From assembly GCF_963675165.1 (NCBI RefSeq), contig NC_087386.1:4036169-4100168 (forward strand): DNA of 64,000 nt, given 5' to 3'. The DNA comes from Halichondria panicea (taxonomy: Eukaryota; Porifera; Demospongiae; Suberitida; Halichondriidae). The notes beneath the pieces are model-generated. The model was not told the origin of the DNA, searched no databases, and saw nothing but the letters and a program-made list of their open reading frames with translations. Both the position numbers and the translations under genes were made by a program. Shown in pieces: positions 24,481 to 35,966 of this stretch; within the stretch, counting starts at the first letter, position 1; every line of letters begins with the position of its first letter.

Positions 24481-24486
24481 TAGACA
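24481..24486. repeat. Left 6-bp target duplication TAGACA
   Basis: TAGACA precedes the left terminus and is repeated at 35961-35966 after the right terminus. Removing the element and one copy restores an open reading frame through ADALSR-NNAS of the DIRS-like element, which independently supports the boundaries. Confidence 0.88.
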
Positions 24487-25624
24487 TATGAGGTGCCGTT
24501 TGTGTCAAAACTATGTAAAAGTGAGACATATATATATGTCCATGGGTATTTATAAATGTCCATGGATATTTATATATATCCACGGGTATTTATAAATACC
24601 CGTAGACATTTATAAATGTCCACAGGTATTTATAAATACCCATAGACATTTATATATGTCCATGGGTATTTATATATGTCCATGGGTATTTATAAATGTC
24701 CATGGGTATATATAAATGTCCATGGGTATTTATAAATGTCCATGGGTATTTATATATGTCCATGGGTATTTATAAATGTCCATGGGTATATATAAATGTC
24801 CATGGGTATTTATAAATGTCCATGGGTATTTATTATATTAATGTCCATGGGTATTTATAAATGTCCATGTGTATTTATAAATGTCAATGGGTATTTATAA
24901 ATGTCCATGGGTATTTATAAATACCCGTAGACATTTATAAATGTCCACAGGTATTTATAAATACCCATAGACATTTATATATGTCCATGGGTATTTATAT
25001 ATGTCAATGGGTATTTATAAATGTCAATGGGTATTTATAAATGTCCATGGGTGTATATAAATGTCCATGGGTATTTATAAATGTCCATGGGTATATATAA
25101 ATGTCCATGGGTATATATAAATGTCCATGTGTATTTATAAATGTCAATGGGTATTTATAAATGTCCATGGGTATTTATAAATACCCGTAGACATTTATAA
25201 ATGTCCACAGGTATTTATAAATACCCATAGACATTTATATATGTCCATGGGTATTTATATATGTCCATGGGTATTTATAAATGTCCATGGGTATATATAA
25301 ATGTCCATGGGTATATATAAATGTCCATGGGTATATATAAATGTCCATGTGTATTTATAAATGTCAATGGGTATTTATAAATGTCAATGGGTATTTATAA
25401 ATGTCAGTGGAGGATGTGTGCTTTTCAGGGTGTGGTTTTGTTACATTACAAGTGGTAGTCACATGATAACCTGCCACATGGTCCACAAGAATGGCTGAAG
25501 GTGTGAATGTTGGAGTGTTGTCTAGTGCCCTGGCTGTTTCAATTCAGCAAGCAGTTAGCAGTGGTTAGTTACAGTTACCTCAAGTGCCAACAAGTGGTGC
25601 CAACCAGAGTCCCATTAGTGACAG
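24487..25624 (+). repeat. Left terminal inverted repeat (about 1.14 kb)
   Basis: From the outside in: a unique 45-bp end (TATGAGGTGCCG...GTGAGACATA), a 20-bp-unit minisatellite (about 24533-25405), a unique promoter-like stretch (GGATGTGTGCTTTTCAGGGT, then GTGGTTTTGTTACATTACAA), and the first coding exon from ATG 25491. The right repeat at 35012-35960 is the same in inverted order but about 190 bp shorter, because the minisatellites differ in copy number. Confidence 0.88.
24533..25405. repeat. Minisatellite, ATGTCCATGGGTATTTATAA unit
   Basis: About 44 copies of a 20-bp unit, with variants in the CCATGG core (CAATGG, CCATGT) and in TATTTATAA/TATATATAA. A palindromic block containing CGTAGACATTTATAAATGTC and CACAGGTATTTATAAATACC recurs at about 24584, 24909 and 25169 (spacings 325 and 260 bp), giving a higher-order structure. 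Confidence 0.9.
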
Positions 25625-26966
25625 GTCAGTGACAGACTCTAGCAGAAAGTTTACCATACCGGCGGTATTACCATTACCCTATGGTAAACACCACGTACTT
25701 CAGTTTCCATAATTATACACGGGCAAGTCCCTTGTCACATAAGACGAGGTTCCACTGTGCTATATCTGTATAAACAATAATTCTGATACATAACTGTCTA
25801 TGTGTATATACAGGTCTGATCGTCCAGGAAGGCCGAGGTCCACTGTTACCATTGACGAAATACTGGAAATACGATCACTTCATTACAAATGGAATAAAAT
25901 TGCGTCTATCTTGGGAATATCAAGAGCAACTTTGTACAGACGATTAGAAGAAAATGGAAGATCCTCACAGGATGGGTCGATGTTGGATGATAATGAGCTA
26001 GATGATGTGATCAGTGGTATAAAAAGAGATCACCCGAATGATGGGGAACGACTTGTCTGCGGCCACTTAAGAGCAAGGGGATTAAAAGTTCCTTGGCAAG
26101 CTGTCAGGGATTCCATTCATCGAACGGATCACGAAAATGTCATTGCGCGTCGCTGTACTGTTGTTAGACGCCGTGTGTACAGTGCCCCTCACCCAAATTA
26201 TGTGTGGCACATTGATGGCCATCATAAACTTATAAGGTGGCGTTTTGTGATCCATGGTTCAATTGACGGCTTCTCCCGCACTATCATTTATGTGGCATGC
26301 ACCGACAACAATCGTTCAGAAACTGTTCTCCAGCTCTTCACTGACAGTATCAGGCACTATGGTGTCCCTAACCATGTGAGATCAGATCACGGTGGAGAAA
26401 ATGTGGAGGTATGGCGGTACATGATTGCTGCACACAATAATGATTACAGTTGTGTAATCACCGGGAGTTCTGTGCACAATGAAAGAATTGAGAGACTCTG
26501 GTGTGACGTTCATAGATGTGTTGGTTCCGTGTTTTCCCAAATCTTCCGATCTTTGGAAAGTGATGGACTTCTTGACCCCTTAAATGAAGTGGATCTTTAC
26601 TGTTTGCATCTGATCTTCCTGCCACGAATAAACAAATGTATTTCAGGTTTCGTAGATAGTTGGAATCATCATCCTTTATCTACTGAAGGCAATCGAACTC
26701 CATACCAACTTTTTTTTGAAGGTATGCTGCAAACAAGCGAGCAAGAACTTGGTACTACAGCTAATGTGGACACTTCTGATGTTGAAGGAGAACGTGTATC
26801 AGTGCCAAGAATTAAGTTTATACCATGCTCAATTTTAAAACAAAGTTTCCAAACTATAAATCCCCTTGAAGAAGCAGAAGATAATGGTAGAGGACTCTTT
26901 GTCGACGTACTTCATACTACAGGACAGCATCTTAATGCTACTTGCTCACAATGTATTTGGATGTAA
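25491..26966 (+). CDS. Integrase-type DDE transposase (IS3EU-like), two exons
   Basis: Exon 1 (25491-25624) lies in the left terminal repeat and encodes MAEGVNVGVLSSALAVSIQQ. A 189-nt intron (25625-25813, GTCAGT...TATACAG) precedes exon 2 (25814-26966), and the phase across the junction is kept (ISDR/SDRPGRPR). Exon 2 encodes a helix-turn-helix (WNKIASILGISRATLYRRL), then an integrase core with WHIDGHHKL (first Asp), VRSDHGGENVEVW (second Asp) and HNERIERLW (Glu), and a C-terminal tail. The intact exon-2 frame is about 384 residues. Exon 1 carries an in-frame TAG at 25566-25568 where the matching exon in the right repeat reads CAG, so this copy would make a truncated product unless translation starts later. 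It presumably cuts and joins the element ends. Confidence 0.85.
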
Positions 26967-26984
26967 TATTCAATTATTATAATT

Positions 26985-27062
26985 ATGATAAGAATGAATG
27001 AAAGAATGAATAAATAAATGAAAAAGGAATGAATAATGTGATGATGAATGAATGAATGAACA
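26985..27062. repeat. GAAT-type microsatellite
   Basis: Imperfect (GAAT)n and (AAAT)n run just downstream of the transposase stop, between the two convergent genes. Confidence 0.8.
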
Positions 27063-27115
27063 CAATGAAGTAATACAGCAGCTAAAATGTCAAAGTTGGA
27101 ACTGTTATATACTAA

Positions 27116-30100
27116 CTACGGACCACCACCAAAACCAGCAGAATCCAAAACGCTCATATCCATTTTTTTCTTAAACATCTCATATGGCAGCTCGTCAAAA
27201 GATCTTGGAAAGGTGATGCTTACGTCACATGTTGAAGTCTTAGGGAGAATCTTTTCATTTGTGAAGTGGACACTAGGGATACAAGGAAACCCAGCTGCTG
27301 GAAGCCTCCTAGAGCCAGAGATAAATTGTAGAATGTCACCAATCGACACACCTGATTCATCACCATCTGTGTTGGGATAAATGCTGTAATGTGTAACTGA
27401 CAAACGATAAATGCTTAGTATGTACATATACAGTGCTGTATAAATGTGTGTAACTGACCAGAGCAATCCATGACATAGTTGCTCCACATGAGGTAAACAG
27501 CCTCCTCTGACTTTCTTTTGTTGCTTCCTCTTTCCGAGTAGCTAGCCACAAACCAGTCTAAGAGGTCACCACCATCAACATCAAACGCAATTGAGGTGGC
27601 AAGGAACGAATGCATGTCATCAGGGTATTGGACCATCAAAATTTCCAGCTGGAGGGTCTCCCTCAATCCCTTCCTTAGCTGTTGCAGCTCAGCAAGAGGG
27701 AGGAAATACACAAAATGGAGCCACACTGTCTTCAGGATCTCCTCCTTATCTGAGATCTGCAGCGAGCTGGTTGGTTTCTGGTAGCCACACTCAAAGCGAA
27801 GCTCAAGGTGCTTGTCATGAGCCCCCGGCTGCGCCAAGGCTCGCAGTTGACTTAAACAGAACACGATCCAAGTAAATAGGAGTCTTCTATAACTTTAACA
27901 TGAGAACAGAACTGCACATAACTCCTTCTCTAGCTATTTTATACAGACACATGCACCAAAAATCTAGATTGTTCTACAACACCCACAAAGTTCTAGAATA
28001 CTGAACCTCTGGAAGGTTCTTAACACATAAAGTTCTGGTCCTTTACCACGGAATGTTCTAGTTCTTAATTAAACCAGTCACAGAATGTTCTAGTTCACCA
28101 CATTCCTCTCCCCTTCTCCTGCGACATTCATGTCGGGGTGAGAAATAGGCAATCGGGAGAGGGCGTCTGCGTTTTGGTTGTCTTTGCCCTTCCGATAGCG
28201 GACAGAAAAGTTGAATGGTTGCAAGGCCAGGCTCCATCGGATGAGACGATTGTTGTTCTCTTTCATTCGCTCCATCCATTCCAGGGAGTGATGGTCCGTC
28301 TGGATTACAAAGGGTCGTCCTAGGAGGTAGACTCGGAAAGCTTCAACAGCGAGTTTAATTGCCAGGCACTCCTTCTCCACGGTCGAGTAGTGTTCTTCTC
28401 GGTTAAGGAGTTTTCGGCTAAAATATCCTACTGGGTGTTCAGCGCCATCCCCATCAGTTTGGCTGAGGACTGCCCCTACACCTCGCTGGGATGCATCGGT
28501 TTGGAGGACAAAGGCTCTCGAAAAGTCTGGATTGTGCAATATCGGCTGTGACAACATCTGCTTCTTCAGGGTCTGGAATGCTGTCTCACAAGCTGGTGTC
28601 CATATTACTGTTGAGGGTAAATTCTTTCGGGTGAGGTCGGACAGGGGGGCGGCAATGGAGGCGAAATCCGGGATAAACCTCCTGTAATATCCAGTTAATC
28701 CAAGGAAACAACGCACTTCTTTTTTCGTTTTTGGTCTTGGAAATTCCATCATTGCCTCTAGTTTTGTTTCCTCTGGTTTCACCACTCCACTCCCAACGAC
28801 ATGGCCTAGGTATATACAGTGGGCCATCCCAAACTGACATTTGCTGAGCTTCATGGTTAGGCCGGCATCTTGGATCCGCTCCAGCACCTGACGTAAATGG
28901 TAGAGGTGGTCCTTCCAATTGGAGCTGTAGATTACAACATCATCTAGGTATGCTGCAGCATATTCTTCCAGTCCTTGCAGTACCCGGTCCATTAGCCTCT
29001 GGAAAGTTGCCGGTGCGCCTTGCAAGCCAAATGGCATAACATTGAAGTGATAAAGACCAAAAGGGGTTACAAATGCCGTCTTCGTCTGGGCTTTCTTGGT
29101 GAGGGGTACCTGCCAGTATCCTTTTGTCAGATCCAAAGTGGTGATGTACTTAGCTTGGCCTAGTCTGTCGATCATCTCGTCAATGCGGGGCATTGGGTAT
29201 GCATCTGCCTCAGAAACTCCATTTAGATGTCGATAGTCAACGCAGAATCGCATAGTACCATCTTTCTTCTTCACCAATACAATAGGGGCTGACCATTCAC
29301 TTGTCGAAGGCTCGATCACTCCATGTTCTAGCATTTCCGCAATTTCTTTCTTCACTGTCTCTCGATAGGCATGAGGTAAGCGGTAAGGAGGCAACCTGAT
29401 TGGGCGTGCCGTTCCGGTTTCAATGTCGTGCTCAATGATTGCTGTCCGTCCTGGGGTGTCTCGCATAGCTTCTACGAATTCGTTGGTTAGCTGACGGAGG
29501 TCATACTGTTGGGTCTCTTCCAGTCGCTTGTCCAGGACAATCTTCTTTGTGATACCGTCACTTTCTTTCCACAACGGGAGTTCATCCGTTAATTCTCCTC
29601 TCTCTTCCTCCGCCAAGAGGTTTGGGATCGTGGGGGTATTCCACTTTCGCAACATGTTGATGTGGAAGACTCTTCTCCGCTTCTTGTGATCGAACATGTC
29701 CACTTCATATGTCACCGGTGAAATCACTTTCTTCACGGGGTAGGGACCTTGCCACTTCGCTAGGAGTTTGTTGGTCGAGGAAGGTAGAAGGACTAGTACG
29801 TTGTCCTCTACCTGCAGCTGCCTCTCTCGTGCATTTCGATCATACCACTTCTTTTGGGTTGTTTGGGCCTTCTTCAGATTCTCACAAGCTAGCTCCGACA
29901 TCTTGGCGAGTTTTTCTTGAATCGTCAGGACATAAGAAACGACACTCTGTAGATTTCTTGCTAGATTCCCACGATTCTTTGAGCACATCAAGAGGTCCTC
30001 GCACCTGCCTTCCATACATTAGTTCAAAGGGAGAAAATCCGGTTGATGACTGGGGTACTTCACGGTAGGCAAACAGCAAATACGGAATTAGTTGGTCCCA

Positions 30101-33100
30101 GTCTTTTCCTTCTTCATTGGCGGTTTTGCGAAGCATGGACTTCAAGGTTTGATTGAAACGTTCTACTAATCCGTCCGTTTGAGGGTGGTAAGGGCTGGTC
30201 TGGATCGGCTGTATCTTCAACAAGCGGTAGAGCTCTGCTAGCAATCCAGATGTGAAATTAGCTCCTTGATCAGTCAGGATCTCTCGGGGTATGCCTACTC
30301 TTGAGAAAAACATTATCAGCTCCTTGGCTACGTGCTCAGCATCTATGGTTCGTAGGGGGACAGCTTCTGGGTACCTTGTACTATAGTCGCAAATCACCAG
30401 GATGTAGCGGTTTCCCGTGCGGCTACGAGGAAGAGGACCCACGATATCCATAGCAATACGTTCAAACGGCTCTCGAATGATGGGTAGGGGAATCATTGGT
30501 ACACGCTGCTTTTTCCCCTTTGATGTCCTCTGACACTCTTCGCACGATTGGCATAGCTTCTTCACATCTTCGAATACTGTCGGCCAATAGAACCGCTGGA
30601 GAATCCGTTCTACGGTCTTTCGCTGCCCCATGTGGCCAGCCATTGGAATATGGTGAGCAAGGGACATCACTAGGCTACGGCACGACTCTGGTAGCACCAA
30701 CTGCTGTATCGGGCTGCTGTCTTCGCCATGGGGTGAGATCCATTGACGGTAAATCAGTCCATTTTCTTCGTGAAAGACCATCTTGCTGGCTCCAGTAGCA
30801 CCGTTCATTGCTTCTCGAATACCTTTAAGCGTGACATCTTCTTGCTGCATTCGTCGCAACTCAATGGGGGACAGGTCCAAGGGGTGTGTCTGCTTGTTTT
30901 GAGCCACTTCACGCCTCTGCTGCCTCTTCTCTCTCCTAGTTAGTTGCTGGTGTTTCTTTACTTCGAGAAAAAGATCTGGGTCCATCTCTGCGCCAAGTGG
31001 CATCTCAGCAATTTGGTCATCGGTTACGTCCAAGTCCGTTAGCATCTCGGCTTGTTGGTCATCAGGAGTGTTGGGAGTGTTTGGAACCATCTTGGCCACT
31101 TGGTCATCAGGCATCTCATCAGTGGATGTGTCGGACGTGGTAGTAGGCTGTTTGATTCCCTCCTGTTGTTGTATCTTCTCCAGTTCCACTCTTTCTTCTT
31201 CGTTTTTCTTGGCCTGGGCTCTGGTCATTACGGCAAGGGCTTCTTCAGTCCGAACTGTCCCTTCCTTATTCTGTAACATTTCGAGTAGGTCTGCCACATC
31301 TCGTCCGAGTAGCACTGGTACTGGGAGGGTCTTTGAAATTGCTGCTTCGATTTGGTGTCTTTCTTCTCCGAGGCCAATTTCTACACTTACGAGTGGATAT
31401 TCTCGAACGTCTCCGTGAGCACATCGGATGCGAACTCGTCCTAGTTGCTTCTTCTGTGGTAGCAGATCACTTCTCACCATTGAACGGGCACAACCGGTGT
31501 CAAGGACAATCTCGTCTACTGCTTTTCCCTCCACTGTGCCGGATCGTGTAATCTGGGGGTTGATTTTCTTCTCCAACTTGTCCTCATTCATGTACACCAA
31601 TTCAGTTTCTTCTGTGAATAGATTTGACTTGCTAGGGCAATTTGCGGCAATATGTCCGGTCTCTTGGCAGTTGTAGCATTTGATTTTGTTCCATTCCATC
31701 TTTGTTTTGTTGGCCTCCCTTCGTCCTTTCTCTGTCCTTCGATCAGCCATAGCCTTCCTACAGTCTTTGGCAATATGGCCCTTTATCTTGCAGTAGTGGC
31801 ACGTTTTGGTTGCTCCGCTCTCACTGCTGGGCCGACGAGTCTCTCGTGGCGGTAACTCCTTAGGATCAAGTTGACGGGAATGAACATAGCTGTCGGCCAG
31901 TCTTCCCGCTTCTTCTCCGGTAGTGGGCTTTCGGTCGCCCAACCAAATTCTCAGGTCTCTAGGCATCCCCTCCATCAGTTGCTCCACTACAATTTTCTCC
32001 TTGAGTGCTTCCATCGTGGTGCAGCCTGCTGTCCATTTCTCCAGGAGGTCTCTCAGTTTTGTTGCGAGCTCCAGGTACGCCTCCCCTTCGGCCTTCTTCG
32101 TAGTTCGGAAGCGTTTGCGGTACGTTTCTTCGCTAATATCATAGCGTTGCAGTATAGCTCTTTTCACGTCCTCATAGTTCTTAGCTTTCTCTACATCCAT
32201 TGCAGCAAAGGCCTGCTGGGCTCTCCCCATAAGTTGTGGCGCTAACTTATGGGCCCAGTGCTCTTCTTTCACTTCAAAGGCTGTCATCAGTCGCTCAAAC
32301 GTAGTCAAGTATGCCTCAATGTCTTCTTTTTCCGTGAGTTTGGCTAGGTTCAAATGTCGTAGATCTTCCGCTCGTTTCGCCTTGATCTCCTCTCGACTCT
32401 GATTTAGGTCCATCCAGTTTCTCATCATCTCCACCTGACTTTGCATCATTTGCATTCTTTGTTCACTTTCTCTCTCTCTACGTTCCTGTTCTTCTGCTCG
32501 TTCTCGCTCTCGTTGTCTGTTCTCTTCTTCTCTTGCTCTGGCCCTTTCCGTTTCTGCCTCGTCACGGCTCCGGCGATCTTCCAGCAGCATCTGTAGAAGT
32601 TCAGTCACTCCAGTTCCTGTCTCTGCCATCGTTATTACAGCTTGGTCACTCTCCACGTCTTGTTCTGTTTCGTTCGCCGATTCTCCTAGGTTGTAGATTC
32701 TGCCAGTCCTTGTCACCGACATACAGATCTACCATTCGCTTCTCAAATTTGTGGGTCTCGAAAAACCACTGTCTTCGACTATCCCACCGCTGCCACCAAT
32801 TGTCATGAGCCCCCGGCTGCGCCAAGGCTCGCAGTTGACTTAAACAGAACACGATCCAAGTAAATAGGAGTCTTCTATAACTTTAACATGAGAACAGAAC
32901 TGCACATAACTCCTTCTCTAGCTATTTTATACAGACACATGCACCAAAAATCTAGATTGTTCTACAACACCCACAAAGTTCTAGAATACTGAACCTCTGG
33001 AAGGTTCTTAACACATAAAGTTCTGGTCCTTTACCACGGAATGTTCTAGTTTTTAATTAAACCAGTCACAGAATGTTCTAGTTCACCACAGTGCTCATCA

Positions 33101-35151
33101 GTGAATGACCTGAGTTCCTCAACATTCACAATAGTTAGCATCTGTAGAAATGTAGTAAAAACAGGCACAGGCACACACACGTACACACGCAACCTTCTCA
33201 AGATTCTGCCGAACTTCGAAGTCAGGTATATCTTGAAGGTCTGGAGAACTCCTCACTTCGTCAAACACAATATAGTCTGCAACAGCACGGCTGAAGCACA
33301 CTGGGGGTGGCCCACCTTGTACTAAGCTGGTTGCAACGATCTTTCCAGTGATGTAGAACTTATTTTCAGCTAAGGCATGAACATTGTGCACTGGTACAGC
33401 ATTCTCAGGCCAGCCTGTGAAAAGGCCACTCTTGTCAAAGAGCTCCCTCATGAGTACACTGAACAGCTCTCGCCTGGGACCTCCATCATCCACTGAAATC
33501 TCCCCAATGAAGGTCACCTTCAGCATCTTTGAGGTGTGAAAGGAAGGTTTGGCGAAAGCACACAATGCATCTTGTACAATGTGACTACGGCGTACACATA
33601 TCCGTTGTCGATCTTCCTCATCAGCTGCACCAGTTAGTACTCTCAACTGATGTTGGAGAACTACGTGCTTGGATACAATTAAATTTGTTTTGCGAACCCC
33701 CCTAAAAGATAATAAATGAAACACGGTCATGTTTCAAATTTAGTCAATACCTTTCTTCCAAATCACGTTGAGGTGCAAGAGAAAACTCCACTTTGGGAAG
33801 CTCATCGTCAGTGCCGCTACCTGACATATCGTCGGGAGACTCTTGTGTCAAATCGATAAGGCTTCTGTAAACATCGTAAGACCTAGACAGAAAAATAAGT
33901 GTTATCATGCATGCAGCATGCACAACATAAAGTAATACCTGTGTGCACTTTCTTCCTTAGGTGTTTTTTTGATAGACTGAGGACGAGGTTTCTTACTGGT
34001 GTTTGAGACAGACGTAGGAGGTGTTTCCTCAGATTTGCGAGAGCCATCCTTTCCTGCATGTTCCCAATCATCGCCTGACTCCAAATCTGAGTCCTATTGT
34101 ACACACATAAATCATGTGCATGGTACAAGGTCTCTTACCTCAACATCTGGCAATGTAAGCTCATCTTGGGCCAAAATATAAATTGGATTCTTGTTAGTTC
34201 CTAGCTTTGCAACTTGTTGTGGTGTCCACGTAAAAGTTGCAGATTTTGAGGGAATAGTGAGTGATTTTGATCCAGCTCCAGTGCATTGAAGAAAGACGAA
34301 GGGAAAGTCCTCTCGGCTTCGCATCTGGCGACTAAACACAGATCGTACCTCCATCTCCATCTCATTTTCTGTCATTAAGGAAGTAAGGCGTATTTTGCCC
34401 ATCAAACCCTTAGAAGCTAGTTTAGCACGGGACTTGCCACGGGGAAATGATATTGGGGATTCACCATCTTTCTTTGGAATGCACACAATGTCTCGATCCC
34501 ACACTTGCAGAGTGCTTTCTTTGGATTTCGATTTCTTCTGTCCTGAGCCTCCTTCACTTCCTCTCTTCCTTTTTAGATAAGATGGTAAAATCACCCGTGC
34601 AGATGAAGGACCTCTGCTGTATGCATGATGGCATGGTCCATAACAAACAGCAACTTTTCAATGTAAAAACATACCTAAGGTAAAAACATTTACGCCTACA
34701 AATTTAACCGCAAAAATCTCATTCCGCGCCTAATCAGAAGCAGCGGATGTTTCCCAGCTAATCCAACAACCGACATCAGCATAAAGCATAAAGCATAAAC
34801 TCAAACTCTGCCAAGATTTAATTGTGAAGAGCTACTAAGCTACTAGTATTAATATGGCTTCCACATGCTTGAGGCTACCATTTGAGAGCGGCTTCTGATC
34901 AAGTATACACTGCTATATCAAGTGTCACCCTGCTAAATTATTGTGGGCTGATGCATGATCAAATGCTGCCTATATCTGAAACTTTCATGGGTCTGTACAC
35001 TACATTTGTACCTTTGACTGGAAGTGTGCTGACTTTGATTGGCAGGGACTTGAGGTGACTGTGACTGTCCACTGCTAGCTGCTTGCTGAATTGCAACAGC
35101 CAGGGCACTAGACAACACTCCAACATTCACACTTATTGAGCCTTCAGCCAT
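27116..35151 (-). CDS. HECT-domain E3 ubiquitin ligase, seven exons, split by retrotransposon
   Basis: Exons on the minus strand: 35151-35012, 34613-34139, 34093-33939, 33882-33751, 33702-33194, 33141-33091 joined to 27812-27459 across the LTR insertion, and about 27373-27116. Each has GT-AG borders except the last acceptor, whose phase I could not settle. Exon 1 (MAEGSISVNVGVLSSALAVA) comes from the right terminal repeat. Exon 2 is basic (KRKRGSEGGSGQKKSKSK). Exon 5 starts the HECT N-lobe (VTFIGEISVDDGGPRRELFS, HNVHALAENKFYITGKIVAT). The last exon is the C-lobe with ISGSRRLPAAGF and KTSTCDVSITFP, whose Cys is the thioester residue, ending AGFGGGP. About 700 residues without the insertion and no stop seen. 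HECT ligases pass ubiquitin from E2 to substrate through that Cys. Substrate unknown. Confidence 0.8.
27813..28102 (-). repeat. 3' LTR of Gmr1-like element
   Basis: 290 bp. Matches 32801-33090 except C versus T in GTTCTTAATTAA / GTTTTTAATTAA near the end. It is preceded on the minus strand by the polypurine tract. Confidence 0.95.
28090..30015 (-). pseudogene. Gmr1-like pol: integrase C-terminus, reverse transcriptase, RNase H
   Basis: Minus-strand frame of 641 codons. Near the start it holds the integrase C-terminal part (KKWYDRNARERQLQVEDNVL, KWQGPYPVKKVISPVTYEV). RT follows with TTLDLTKGYWQVPL, NVMPFGLQGAPATFQ and AAAYLDDVVIYS (catalytic YLDD). RNase H follows with FVLQTDASQRGVGAVL, STVEKECLAIKLAV, and NQNADALSRLP at the end. 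The frame is shifted by one nucleotide relative to the upstream frame at about 29950, inside the integrase region rather than at a gag-pol boundary. I read this as an inactivating indel, not programmed frameshifting. Confidence 0.9.
28103..28120 (-). other. Polypurine tract of Gmr1-like element
   Basis: The minus strand reads AGGAGAAGGGGAGAGGAA directly before the 3' LTR. It would prime plus-strand DNA synthesis. Confidence 0.85.
29882..32722 (-). CDS. Gmr1-like gag, protease and integrase core
   Basis: Minus-strand frame of 946 codons. Residues about 50-115 are a charged Arg/Glu coiled-coil-like stretch. Residues about 131-284 resemble the SCAN domain (EDIEAYLTTFERLM, SEETYRKRFRTTKKAEGEAY, LRDLLEKW, LEQ-like VVEQLMEGMPRDLRIWL). 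Zinc knuckles are at 308-321 (CHYCKIKGHIAKDC) and 349-362 (CYNCQETGHIAANC). The protease site is LDTG at 407-410. Integrase follows from about 680: HHIPMAGHMGQRKTVERILQ with CQSCEEC, then IAMDIVGPL, LTDQGANFTS and HPQTDGLVERF for the D-D-E set. The known origin of vertebrate SCAN from Gmr1-like gag makes the gag assignment coherent. The frame runs past the true path at the shift near 29950. Confidence 0.9.
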   Translation of the reverse strand: MSVTRTGRIYNLGESANETEQDVESDQAVITMAETGTGVTELLQMLLEDRRSRDEAETERARAREEENRQRERERAEEQERRERESEQRMQMMQSQVEMMRNWMDLNQSREEIKAKRAEDLRHLNLAKLTEKEDIEAYLTTFERLMTAFEVKEEHWAHKLAPQLMGRAQQAFAAMDVEKAKNYEDVKRAILQRYDISEETYRKRFRTTKKAEGEAYLELATKLRDLLEKWTAGCTTMEALKEKIVVEQLMEGMPRDLRIWLGDRKPTTGEEAGRLADSYVHSRQLDPKELPPRETRRPSSESGATKTCHYCKIKGHIAKDCRKAMADRRTEKGRREANKTKMEWNKIKCYNCQETGHIAANCPSKSNLFTEETELVYMNEDKLEKKINPQITRSGTVEGKAVDEIVLDTGCARSMVRSDLLPQKKQLGRVRIRCAHGDVREYPLVSVEIGLGEERHQIEAAISKTLPVPVLLGRDVADLLEMLQNKEGTVRTEEALAVMTRAQAKKNEEERVELEKIQQQEGIKQPTTTSDTSTDEMPDDQVAKMVPNTPNTPDDQQAEMLTDLDVTDDQIAEMPLGAEMDPDLFLEVKKHQQLTRREKRQQRREVAQNKQTHPLDLSPIELRRMQQEDVTLKGIREAMNGATGASKMVFHEENGLIYRQWISPHGEDSSPIQQLVLPESCRSLVMSLAHHIPMAGHMGQRKTVERILQRFYWPTVFEDVKKLCQSCEECQRTSKGKKQRVPMIPLPIIREPFERIAMDIVGPLPRSRTGNRYILVICDYSTRYPEAVPLRTIDAEHVAKELIMFFSRVGIPREILTDQGANFTSGLLAELYRLLKIQPIQTSPYHPQTDGLVERFNQTLKSMLRKTANEEGKDWDQLIPYLLFAYREVPQSSTGFSPFELMYGRQVRGPLDVLKESWESSKKSTECRFLCPDDSRKTRQDVGASL
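32781..32798 (-). other. Primer-binding site, tRNA-Leu type
   Basis: The plus strand here reads ATCCCACCGCTGCCACCA, the 3' end of metazoan tRNA-Leu (AAG/UAG type) including CCA. Thus the minus-strand element carries its complement two bases inside the 5' LTR. Confidence 0.85.
32801..33090 (-). repeat. 5' LTR of Gmr1-like element
   Basis: 290 bp, beginning TGTCATGAGCCCCCGG on the plus strand and ending TTCACCACA. Target duplication GTGCT follows at 33091-33095. Confidence 0.95.
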
Positions 35152-35960
35152 TGTTGTGACCATGTGGCAGGTTATGTAACAGTCATGTGACTATCACTTG
35201 TAATGTAACAAAACCACACCCTGAAAAGCACACATCCTCCACTGACATTTATAAATACACATGGACATTTATAAATACCCATTGACATTTATAAATACAC
35301 ATGGACATTTATAAATACCCATGGACATATAATAAATACCCATGGACATTTATATATACCCATGGACATTTATAAATACCCATGGACATTTATATATACC
35401 CATGGACATTTATAAATACCCATGGACATTTATATATACCCATGGACATATATAAATACCCAAGGACATATATAAATACCCATGGACATTTATAAATACA
35501 CATGGACATTTATAAATACCCATGGACATTTATAAATATCCATTGACATTTATAAATACCCATGGACATATAATAAATACCCATGGACATTTATATATAC
35601 CCATGGACATTTATAAATACCCATTGACATTTATAAATACACATGGACATTTATAAATACCCATGGACATATAATAAATACCCATGGACATTTGTAAATA
35701 CCCATGGACATTTATATATACCCATGGACATTTATATATACCCATGGACATTTATATATACCCATGGACATTTATAAATACCCATGGACATATATAAATG
35801 TCTATGGGTATTTATAAATACCTGTGGACATTTATAAATGTCTACGGGTATTTATAAATACCCGTGGATATATATAAATACCCATGGACATTTATAAATA
35901 CCCATGGACATATATATATGTCTCACTTTTACATAGTTTTGACACAAACGGCACCTCATA
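35012..35960 (-). repeat. Right terminal inverted repeat (about 0.95 kb)
   Basis: Inverted copy of 24487-25624: the unique outer end (35960-35920), a shorter minisatellite, the promoter-like stretch and exon 1 of the HECT gene. Exon 1 here reads SSGQSQSPQVP without the stop found in the left copy. Confidence 0.88.
35236..35925. repeat. Minisatellite of right terminal repeat
   Basis: About 34 copies of the same 20-bp unit as 24533-25405, in inverted orientation. One palindromic block (35797-35860) corresponds to the block present three times on the left. Confidence 0.9.
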
Positions 35961-35966
35961 TAGACA
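35961..35966. repeat. Right 6-bp target duplication TAGACA
   Basis: Matches 24481-24486. Confidence 0.88.

What the first reader, a model, noticed from the sequence alone, without database searches (positions are those of the whole stretch)
24487..35960. DNA transposon that encodes its own HECT ubiquitin ligase
Seen: an element with verified 6-bp duplication and about 1-kb inverted repeats contains an integrase-type transposase and, convergent to it, a seven-exon gene whose last exons are a HECT N-lobe (DDGGPRRELF) and C-lobe with the catalytic TSTC motif. No stop was found in the HECT exons apart from the later LTR insertion, so it was intact when the retrotransposon arrived. Known: HECT proteins transfer ubiquitin; IS3EU-type elements are described by their transposase. 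Inference: the ligase is a standing part of the element and could act on host factors or on the transposase.
Basis: partly seen in the sequence, partly recalled or inferred. Interest (0 to 1): 0.92.

Follow-up and report, generated by a model that had tools for sequence, protein, structure and literature searches.

The report
Transposon family carrying a ubiquitin ligase
A mobile DNA element in a sponge carries, besides the enzyme that moves it, a gene for a ubiquitin-attaching enzyme, and this pairing recurs across many related elements in the same genome and probably in fish, so it looks like a built-in part of the element rather than a passenger.

Summary
The element is exactly 24487-35960: 6-bp duplication TAGACA, TA..TA termini, long TIRs, an integrase-type transposase and a convergent seven-exon HECT gene, cut by an LTR retrotransposon. 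All 7 fetched copies with both ends and a matching duplication hold both genes; one has both intact. Genome-wide (probably Halichondria panicea), at least 73 of 116 transposase loci have a convergent HECT within 8 kb (about 0.4 expected). Of six HECT-negative loci inspected, two hold decayed HECT genes, one a weak match, three none. Pairing spans about 16 diverged families; transposase and HECT distances correlate (Mantel r 0.37, 4/9999). Two HECT classes occur; one sits on two transposase clades, so the ligase seems exchanged rather than dispensed with. In the main family both genes begin with nearly the same exon, because it lies in the TIR; in a cichlid, a HECT protein and a PF24764 transposase share their first 40 residues. 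The ligase is best read as a standing second gene of animal IS3EU elements, probably also behind fish genes named 'G2/M phase-specific E3 ligase-like'. Its function is inferred. Fungal IS3EU carry an alpha-kinase in that orientation; my searches found no paper joining IS3EU with HECT.

The parts
24481..24486 (.). left target-site duplication TAGACA
   Evidence: sequence; six sister copies have their own matching 6-bp TSDs
24487..25588 (+). left terminal inverted repeat: TATGAGGTGCCG terminus, 20-bp minisatellite array, single-copy stretch with start codon and most of the first exon
25491..25624 (+). transposase first exon, mirrored copy of the HECT first exon; in-frame TAG at codon 26 in this copy only
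   Evidence: in L009 exons 1 and 2 join in one open frame of 428 codons
25814..26966 (+). transposase main exon, integrase core PF24764; D134, D191, E226 of the 383-aa frame 25815-26963 (DDE reading is mine)
27116..27383 (-). HECT exon 7, C-lobe with TSTC
27455..27807 (-). HECT exon 6, 3' part (beyond the LTR insertion)
27813..33090 (-). LTR retrotransposon inserted in HECT exon 6; later event, not part of the element
   Evidence: direct repeats 99%; flanking 5-bp GTGCT read
33091..33141 (-). HECT exon 6, 5' part
33194..33701 (-). HECT exon 5, N-lobe (VDDGGPRRELF)
33751..33882 (-). HECT exon 4
33939..34093 (-). HECT exon 3 (mostly deleted in four sister copies)
34139..34616 (-). HECT exon 2, N-terminal domain without Pfam match (deleted in four sister copies)
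35012..35151 (-). HECT first exon MAEGSISVNVGVLSSALAVAIQQ..., mostly within the right TIR
35045..35960 (-). right terminal inverted repeat
35961..35966 (.). right target-site duplication TAGACA

Best explanation
The element is an IS3EU-type DNA transposon whose normal complement is two convergent genes: a DDE transposase and a HECT-type ubiquitin ligase. Shown: both genes travel together in recent copies and in many diverged families; the C-lobe TC motif of the catalytic cysteine is kept in every C-lobe aligned; the HECT is under coding constraint. In the main family each TIR carries upstream sequence plus a first exon, so the two proteins begin with nearly the same peptide; in fish a HECT protein and a transposase also share their N-terminus. 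Inferred: each TIR acts as promoter for one gene, so both are made together. The ligase charges its cysteine with ubiquitin and is brought to the transposase-DNA complex, perhaps through the shared N-terminus. There it ubiquitinates the transposase or nearby host chromatin, repair or silencing proteins, helping to take apart the strand-transfer complex or to blunt the host response. My own estimates: pairing is a standing feature 0.95; active ligase 0.8; serves the element by ubiquitination 0.5; recruited through the shared N-terminus 0.25.
For: 7 of 7 fetched copies with both ends and TSD hold both genes; L009 has both open. 73 of 116 transposase loci have a convergent HECT within 8 kb against about 0.4 expected (0.00365 per locus; counts are lower bounds). 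Both 'no HECT' loci fetched for checking, L048 and L049, hold decayed HECT exons. A second family (L024) has TIR, TSD GCCAGC and both genes. Distances co-vary: r 0.55 over 17 loci (0/9999); r 0.37 over 16 without the near-duplicate (4/9999). Constraint: main versus L035 HECT, 505 codons, identity 0.57/0.71/0.33 at codon positions 1/2/3, like the transposase 0.57/0.69/0.37. TC invariant in 7 C-lobes, six sponge and one fish, and present in all 17 rows. Relative P0141 (55% identical) is modelled at pLDDT 83; the 50 PDB ranks printed are all HECT entries. Shared N-termini: sponge, cichlid 42/48, first 40 residues identical. Three HECT/transposase protein pairs report the same longest-contig length: 6014, 640814, 2676.
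Against: No expression, biochemical or transposition data. 38 of 116 transposase loci showed no downstream HECT; I looked into six of them: L048 and L049 hold decayed HECT exons, L020 a weak match (E 0.013), L023 and both transposases of L019 none. Five loci have the HECT on the same strand. Only three of seven main-family copies have an open HECT frame: L009, L011 and, in the shortened form, L013 (damage in the others). Four copies share a deletion of exon 2 and most of exon 3. The shared first exon was not found in families L032, L034 or L035, so it may only be a by-product of long TIRs. Congruence within class 2 alone was not significant (594/9999, 5 families). Sponge and fish N-terminal domains gave no profile match. 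The P0141 model aligns to solved HECTs with only moderate TM-scores (0.37-0.62 of the query). In fish, linkage on one element is inferred from proteins, not seen in DNA.
Confidence: 0.6

Rival explanations
1. The HECT acts only on host targets: it degrades or redirects host silencing, DNA-repair or immune factors so that the element persists, with no contact with its transposase.
For: HECT class 2 sits on two transposase clades, as expected of an exchangeable host-facing module. Kojima 2025 (PMC12730594; abstract and passages seen) reports TET/JBP dioxygenase genes, said there to help transposons escape methylation, in fungal IS3EU beside an alpha-kinase gene.
Against: The shared first exon in the main family and in fish hints at a link to the transposase; no host target is known.
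Confidence: 0.35
2. Passenger capture: a host HECT gene was caught once by this element and has no role in it.
For: DNA transposons do pick up genes (recalled); four of seven main-family copies have damaged HECT frames.
Against: Pairing in about 16 diverged families and at 73 of 116 loci, and a likely counterpart in fish; coding constraint. 25 HECT loci found by PF00632 alone, many of them multi-exon, lie away from transposases.
Confidence: 0.03
3. The HECT-like protein has lost ligase activity and works as a binding or structural partner of the transposase.
For: PF00632 scores are modest (49 bits for the full protein); sequence similarity to solved HECTs is weak (best 1.8e-5).
Against: The TC motif is kept in the six sponge and one fish C-lobes and in both classes; the modelled fold of a relative is a HECT domain.
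Confidence: 0.12

Closest known systems
IS3EU / GingerRoot superfamily (Kojima and Bao 2023, PMC10045372; abstract, outline and passages seen)
   Same: 6-bp TSD, TA..TA termini, integrase-like DDE transposase
   Different: that paper's main text has no occurrence of HECT or ubiquitin
Fungal TET+ IS3EU elements with an alpha-kinase gene (Kojima 2025, PMC12730594; passages seen)
   Same: the second gene is a protein-modifying enzyme in the orientation opposite to the transposase
   Different: alpha-kinase plus TET/JBP in fungi; here a HECT ubiquitin ligase in animals; no occurrence of HECT or ubiquitin in that paper's main text
[quoted passage not shown]
   Same: 25-26% identical to the sponge HECT protein P0001; in Archocentrus centrarchus a HECT protein (P0124) and a PF24764 transposase (P0155) share their N-terminus
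   Different: annotated as host genes; many carry an N-terminal zinc ribbon instead of the sponge peptide
Other transposons with ubiquitin/SUMO-pathway genes (Ulp1-like protease in plant MULEs, OTU protease in some Helitrons, RING domain of RAG1): recalled, not looked up
   Same: a mobile-element protein acting in the ubiquitin or SUMO pathway
   Different: proteases or RING domains, not a separate HECT ligase gene convergent to the transposase

Membership tests
IS3EU superfamily | 6-bp target-site duplication | tested here: met
   7 of 7 fetched two-ended main-family copies over 1 kb; the 415-bp fragment L017 has none; two other families, GCCAGC and CTCCCT. Ends of L032, L034, L035 were not found
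IS3EU superfamily | TA..TA termini | tested here: met
   TATGAGGTGCCG..CGGCACCTCATA; TATGAGGGG (L024) and TATGGAACG (L029), both ends; TATGGCACG (L033, left end only)
IS3EU superfamily | integrase-type DDE transposase | tested here: met
   PF24764 2.7e-78, rve 2.3e-9; D134, D191, E226 invariant in 12 sequences
IS3EU superfamily | transposase groups with Repbase IS3EU sequences in a tree | not testable with these tools
   Repbase is not held here
HECT ubiquitin ligases | N-lobe plus C-lobe HECT domain | tested here: met
   PF00632 8.8e-13; model of the 55%-identical relative P0141 matches HECT structures
HECT ubiquitin ligases | catalytic cysteine in the C-lobe | tested here: met
   TC invariant in 7 C-lobes and present in all 17 rows aligned
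HECT ubiquitin ligases | ubiquitin transfer activity | not testable with these tools
   needs an enzyme assay
G2E3 (true G2/M-phase E3 ligase) | PHD fingers in front of the HECT domain (definition recalled) | tested here: not met
   Pfam finds only PF00632 in the spliced protein; so 'G2/M ... ligase-like' is a database label, not membership

The most novel reading that the evidence does not exclude
Animal IS3EU elements are two-enzyme machines in which a self-encoded HECT ligase, carrying the same TIR-encoded N-terminal peptide as the transposase, joins the transposase-DNA complex and takes it apart or shields it by ubiquitination; and the many fish genes named G2/M phase-specific E3 ligase-like are genes of such transposons, some possibly co-opted by their hosts.
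Probability: 0.3. Interest if true: 0.92.

Novelty: new variant of a known kind. Interest (0 to 1): 0.82.

Why it matters
It would make ubiquitin ligation a normal part of the toolkit of a eukaryotic transposon superfamily and give a small two-gene system in which to ask what a transposon-encoded ligase does. It would also mean that an E3-ligase-like gene family annotated as host genes in fish is at least partly mobile DNA, which affects gene counts, claims of lineage-specific expansion and the search for domesticated ligases.

Tried and rejected
One-off capture of a host gene: rejected by the genome survey. Homology between the sponge HECT protein's N-terminal domain (exon 2) and the fish N-terminal region looked possible by eye, but profile comparison gave probability 0.1, so it is not claimed. 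The shared first exon as a universal feature: not found in families L032, L034, L035. Relatives in viral contigs: 22 pattern matches, none confirmed. Rfam over the window: nothing at the gathering score. A stop that one search flagged in the L011 HECT match lies in the intron, not in exon 5.

Literature (open-licence PMC library only; Repbase Reports not covered): IS3EU with HECT, 0 papers; IS3EU with ubiquitin, 2 papers, judged irrelevant from the listing; IS3EU with alpha-kinase, 1. Of 32 IS3EU papers (20 listed) I opened two. Other HECT-and-transposon searches listed nothing that by title reports a HECT gene in such an element. PMC5549377 (two passages seen) draws a G2/M ligase-like gene next to 5S rDNA in a carp BAC; not used.

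The element-type HECT loci without a detected transposase C12:3279889, C14:3862792, C5:3948507, C1:8127569, C10:3909560 were translated and not resolved. A formal dN/dS was not computed: between families silent sites look saturated (third-position identity 0.26-0.43), and main-family copies differ too little.

Full report
Observation. The element lies exactly at 24487-35960 and is flanked by the 6-bp duplication TAGACA. Its ends are TATGAGGTGCCG and the reverse complement. The two arms align at 92% over 722 bp and, in a shifted register through the minisatellite, at 87% up to and into the first exons. Inside are a transposase exon (PF24764 2.7e-78) and, convergent to it, HECT exons. A 5.3-kb LTR retrotransposon (27813-33090, direct repeats 99%) sits in HECT exon 6. 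Exon borders were located, and two uninterrupted sister copies, L009 and L011, each give a single open frame of 694 codons through seven exons.

Copies. The genome that holds the window has 131 Mb in 39 contigs. It is probably Halichondria panicea: a 97%-identical protein is named from that species, on a contig of 5,741,248 bases, near the 5,739,701 of contig C17. Seven fetched main-family copies have both ends, each with its own matching 6-bp TSD (window, L009-L013, and the C17 copy L014/L015). All seven hold transposase and HECT. L009 has both genes open: HECT 694 codons, transposase 428 codons over two exons. The HECT frame is also open in L011 and, in a shortened form that skips the deleted exons 2-3, in L013 (483 codons). 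L010 has a stop, L012 and the C17 copy have gaps in exon 7, and the C17 copy and the window carry insertions. Four copies (L010, L012, L013, C17) share one deletion of exon 2 and most of exon 3. L016 is one-ended and keeps only part of the last HECT exon. L017 is a 415-bp two-ended fragment with neither gene and no matching TSD. One search also lists about six short loci with diverged TIRs that I did not fetch; none coincides with a transposase or HECT hit.

Genome survey. 73 of 116 transposase loci have a HECT on the opposite strand downstream within 8 kb, 5 have one on the same strand and 38 have none. About 0.4 convergent pairs are expected by chance (0.00365 per locus times 116). The tool states that its counts for large families are lower bounds. 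I looked into six of the 38: L048 and L049, fetched for this, both hold decayed convergent HECT exons; L020 has a weak one (E 0.013); L023 and the two facing transposases of L019 have none found. Of the 113 HECT loci, 36 were not matched to a transposase: 25 were found by PF00632 alone, many multi-exon, and look like ordinary host HECT genes (inference); one is the window's own N-lobe, split from its C-lobe by the retrotransposon (the window's C-lobe is the one counted as paired); ten are element-type HECT without a detected partner. One of these ten, L029, is a 2.9-kb element with TSD CTCCCT and a HECT but no transposase hit.

Depth and constraint. I compared 17 loci with both genes, two of them close relatives, so about 16 families. 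Distances of transposase and HECT C-lobe co-vary (Mantel r 0.55, 0 of 9999; r 0.37, 4 of 9999, without the near-duplicate; class 1 alone, near-duplicate included, r 0.70, 0 of 9999; class 2 alone r 0.82 but 594 of 9999). The C-lobes form two classes (100/100), and class 2 falls on two separate, supported transposase clades, so at least two changes are needed. I read this as exchange, or loss from an ancestor with both, of a module that must remain a HECT. Codon-position identities show protein constraint on the HECT (0.57, 0.71, 0.33 over 505 codons against L035) like that on the transposase. One C6 element (L044/L045) appears split by another IS3EU copy lying between its two genes; I paired the halves because they match family L040 at 90% (transposase) and 96% (HECT) amino acids.

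Beyond the sponge. The HECT protein finds fish proteins of similar length (36 proteins at E 0.001 or better, candidates capped), several named G2/M phase-specific E3 ligase-like. The same search returned two fish PF24764 transposases, because they share an N-terminal zinc ribbon with the fish HECT proteins; in Archocentrus centrarchus 42 of 48 residues match and the first 40 are identical. In the sponge family the transposase's first exon mirrors the HECT's first exon and is open in six copies (L009, L011, L012, L013, L015, L016); it is frameshifted in L010 and has a TAG in the window copy. Of the other six (P0141, P0146, P0151-P0154), three report the same longest-contig length as one of the 120 transposases listed (6014, 640814, 2676), so they probably lie on the same contigs (inference). 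The relative P0141 is modelled as a full HECT domain (pLDDT 83.3; the 50 best PDB ranks printed are HECT entries, TM-score of the query 0.37-0.62).

Mechanism and place among known things. The element meets the testable IS3EU criteria. What is new against the literature I could search is the HECT as standing partner. Kojima 2025 states that all TET+ IS3EU families of fungi have a TET/JBP gene between transposase and alpha-kinase genes, which are in opposite orientations (PMC12730594, passages), so a second, protein-modifying gene in that orientation has a precedent. I favour a ligase that acts for the element at or near the transposase-DNA complex; that step is inference without biochemical support, and the shared N-terminus that suggests it is not found in all families.

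Noticed in passing
window 25566-25568: The window copy alone has an in-frame TAG in the transposase first exon; six other copies have a glutamine codon there in an open frame and L010 is frameshifted just after.
   Followed up: yes
L010, L012, L013, L014/L015: Four copies share one deletion of HECT exon 2 and most of exon 3; joining exon 1 to exon 4 keeps the frame, and in L013 this gives an open 483-codon HECT protein.
   Followed up: partly
L033 family: C16:4428567-4447632, C8:779798-797953, C13:4272500-4282170 and others: Copies of this family come mostly as neighbouring inverted pairs about 10-29 kb across, like composite elements with two transposase and two HECT genes.
   Followed up: partly
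L019 (G000:C6:2971000-2980600): Two different IS3EU transposases face each other, with a TATGGGGTGCCG left end and no HECT found between them; by eye a close relative of the left transposase (L048) does have a decayed HECT.
   Followed up: partly
C4:2653247, C4:3498270, C15:5970426, C7:4193342: A small subfamily has the class-2 HECT about 3 kb downstream on the same strand as the transposase.
   Followed up: no
window 24525-25400 and 35250-35920: The TIRs consist mostly of a 20-bp minisatellite (TTTATAAATGTCCATGGGTA-like, by eye; 20-bp spacing) that is itself partly palindromic; possibly an array of transposase-binding sites.
   Followed up: no
P0150: A predicted 558-aa protein of unnamed source joins a THAP domain (PF05485) to the N-terminal region of the fish HECT protein: a possible chimera.
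   Followed up: no
L030:4492-5190 and L028:4983-5516 (minus and plus strand): Open HECT N-lobe exons without a transposase detected within 8 kb; candidates for decayed elements or co-opted genes.
   Followed up: partly
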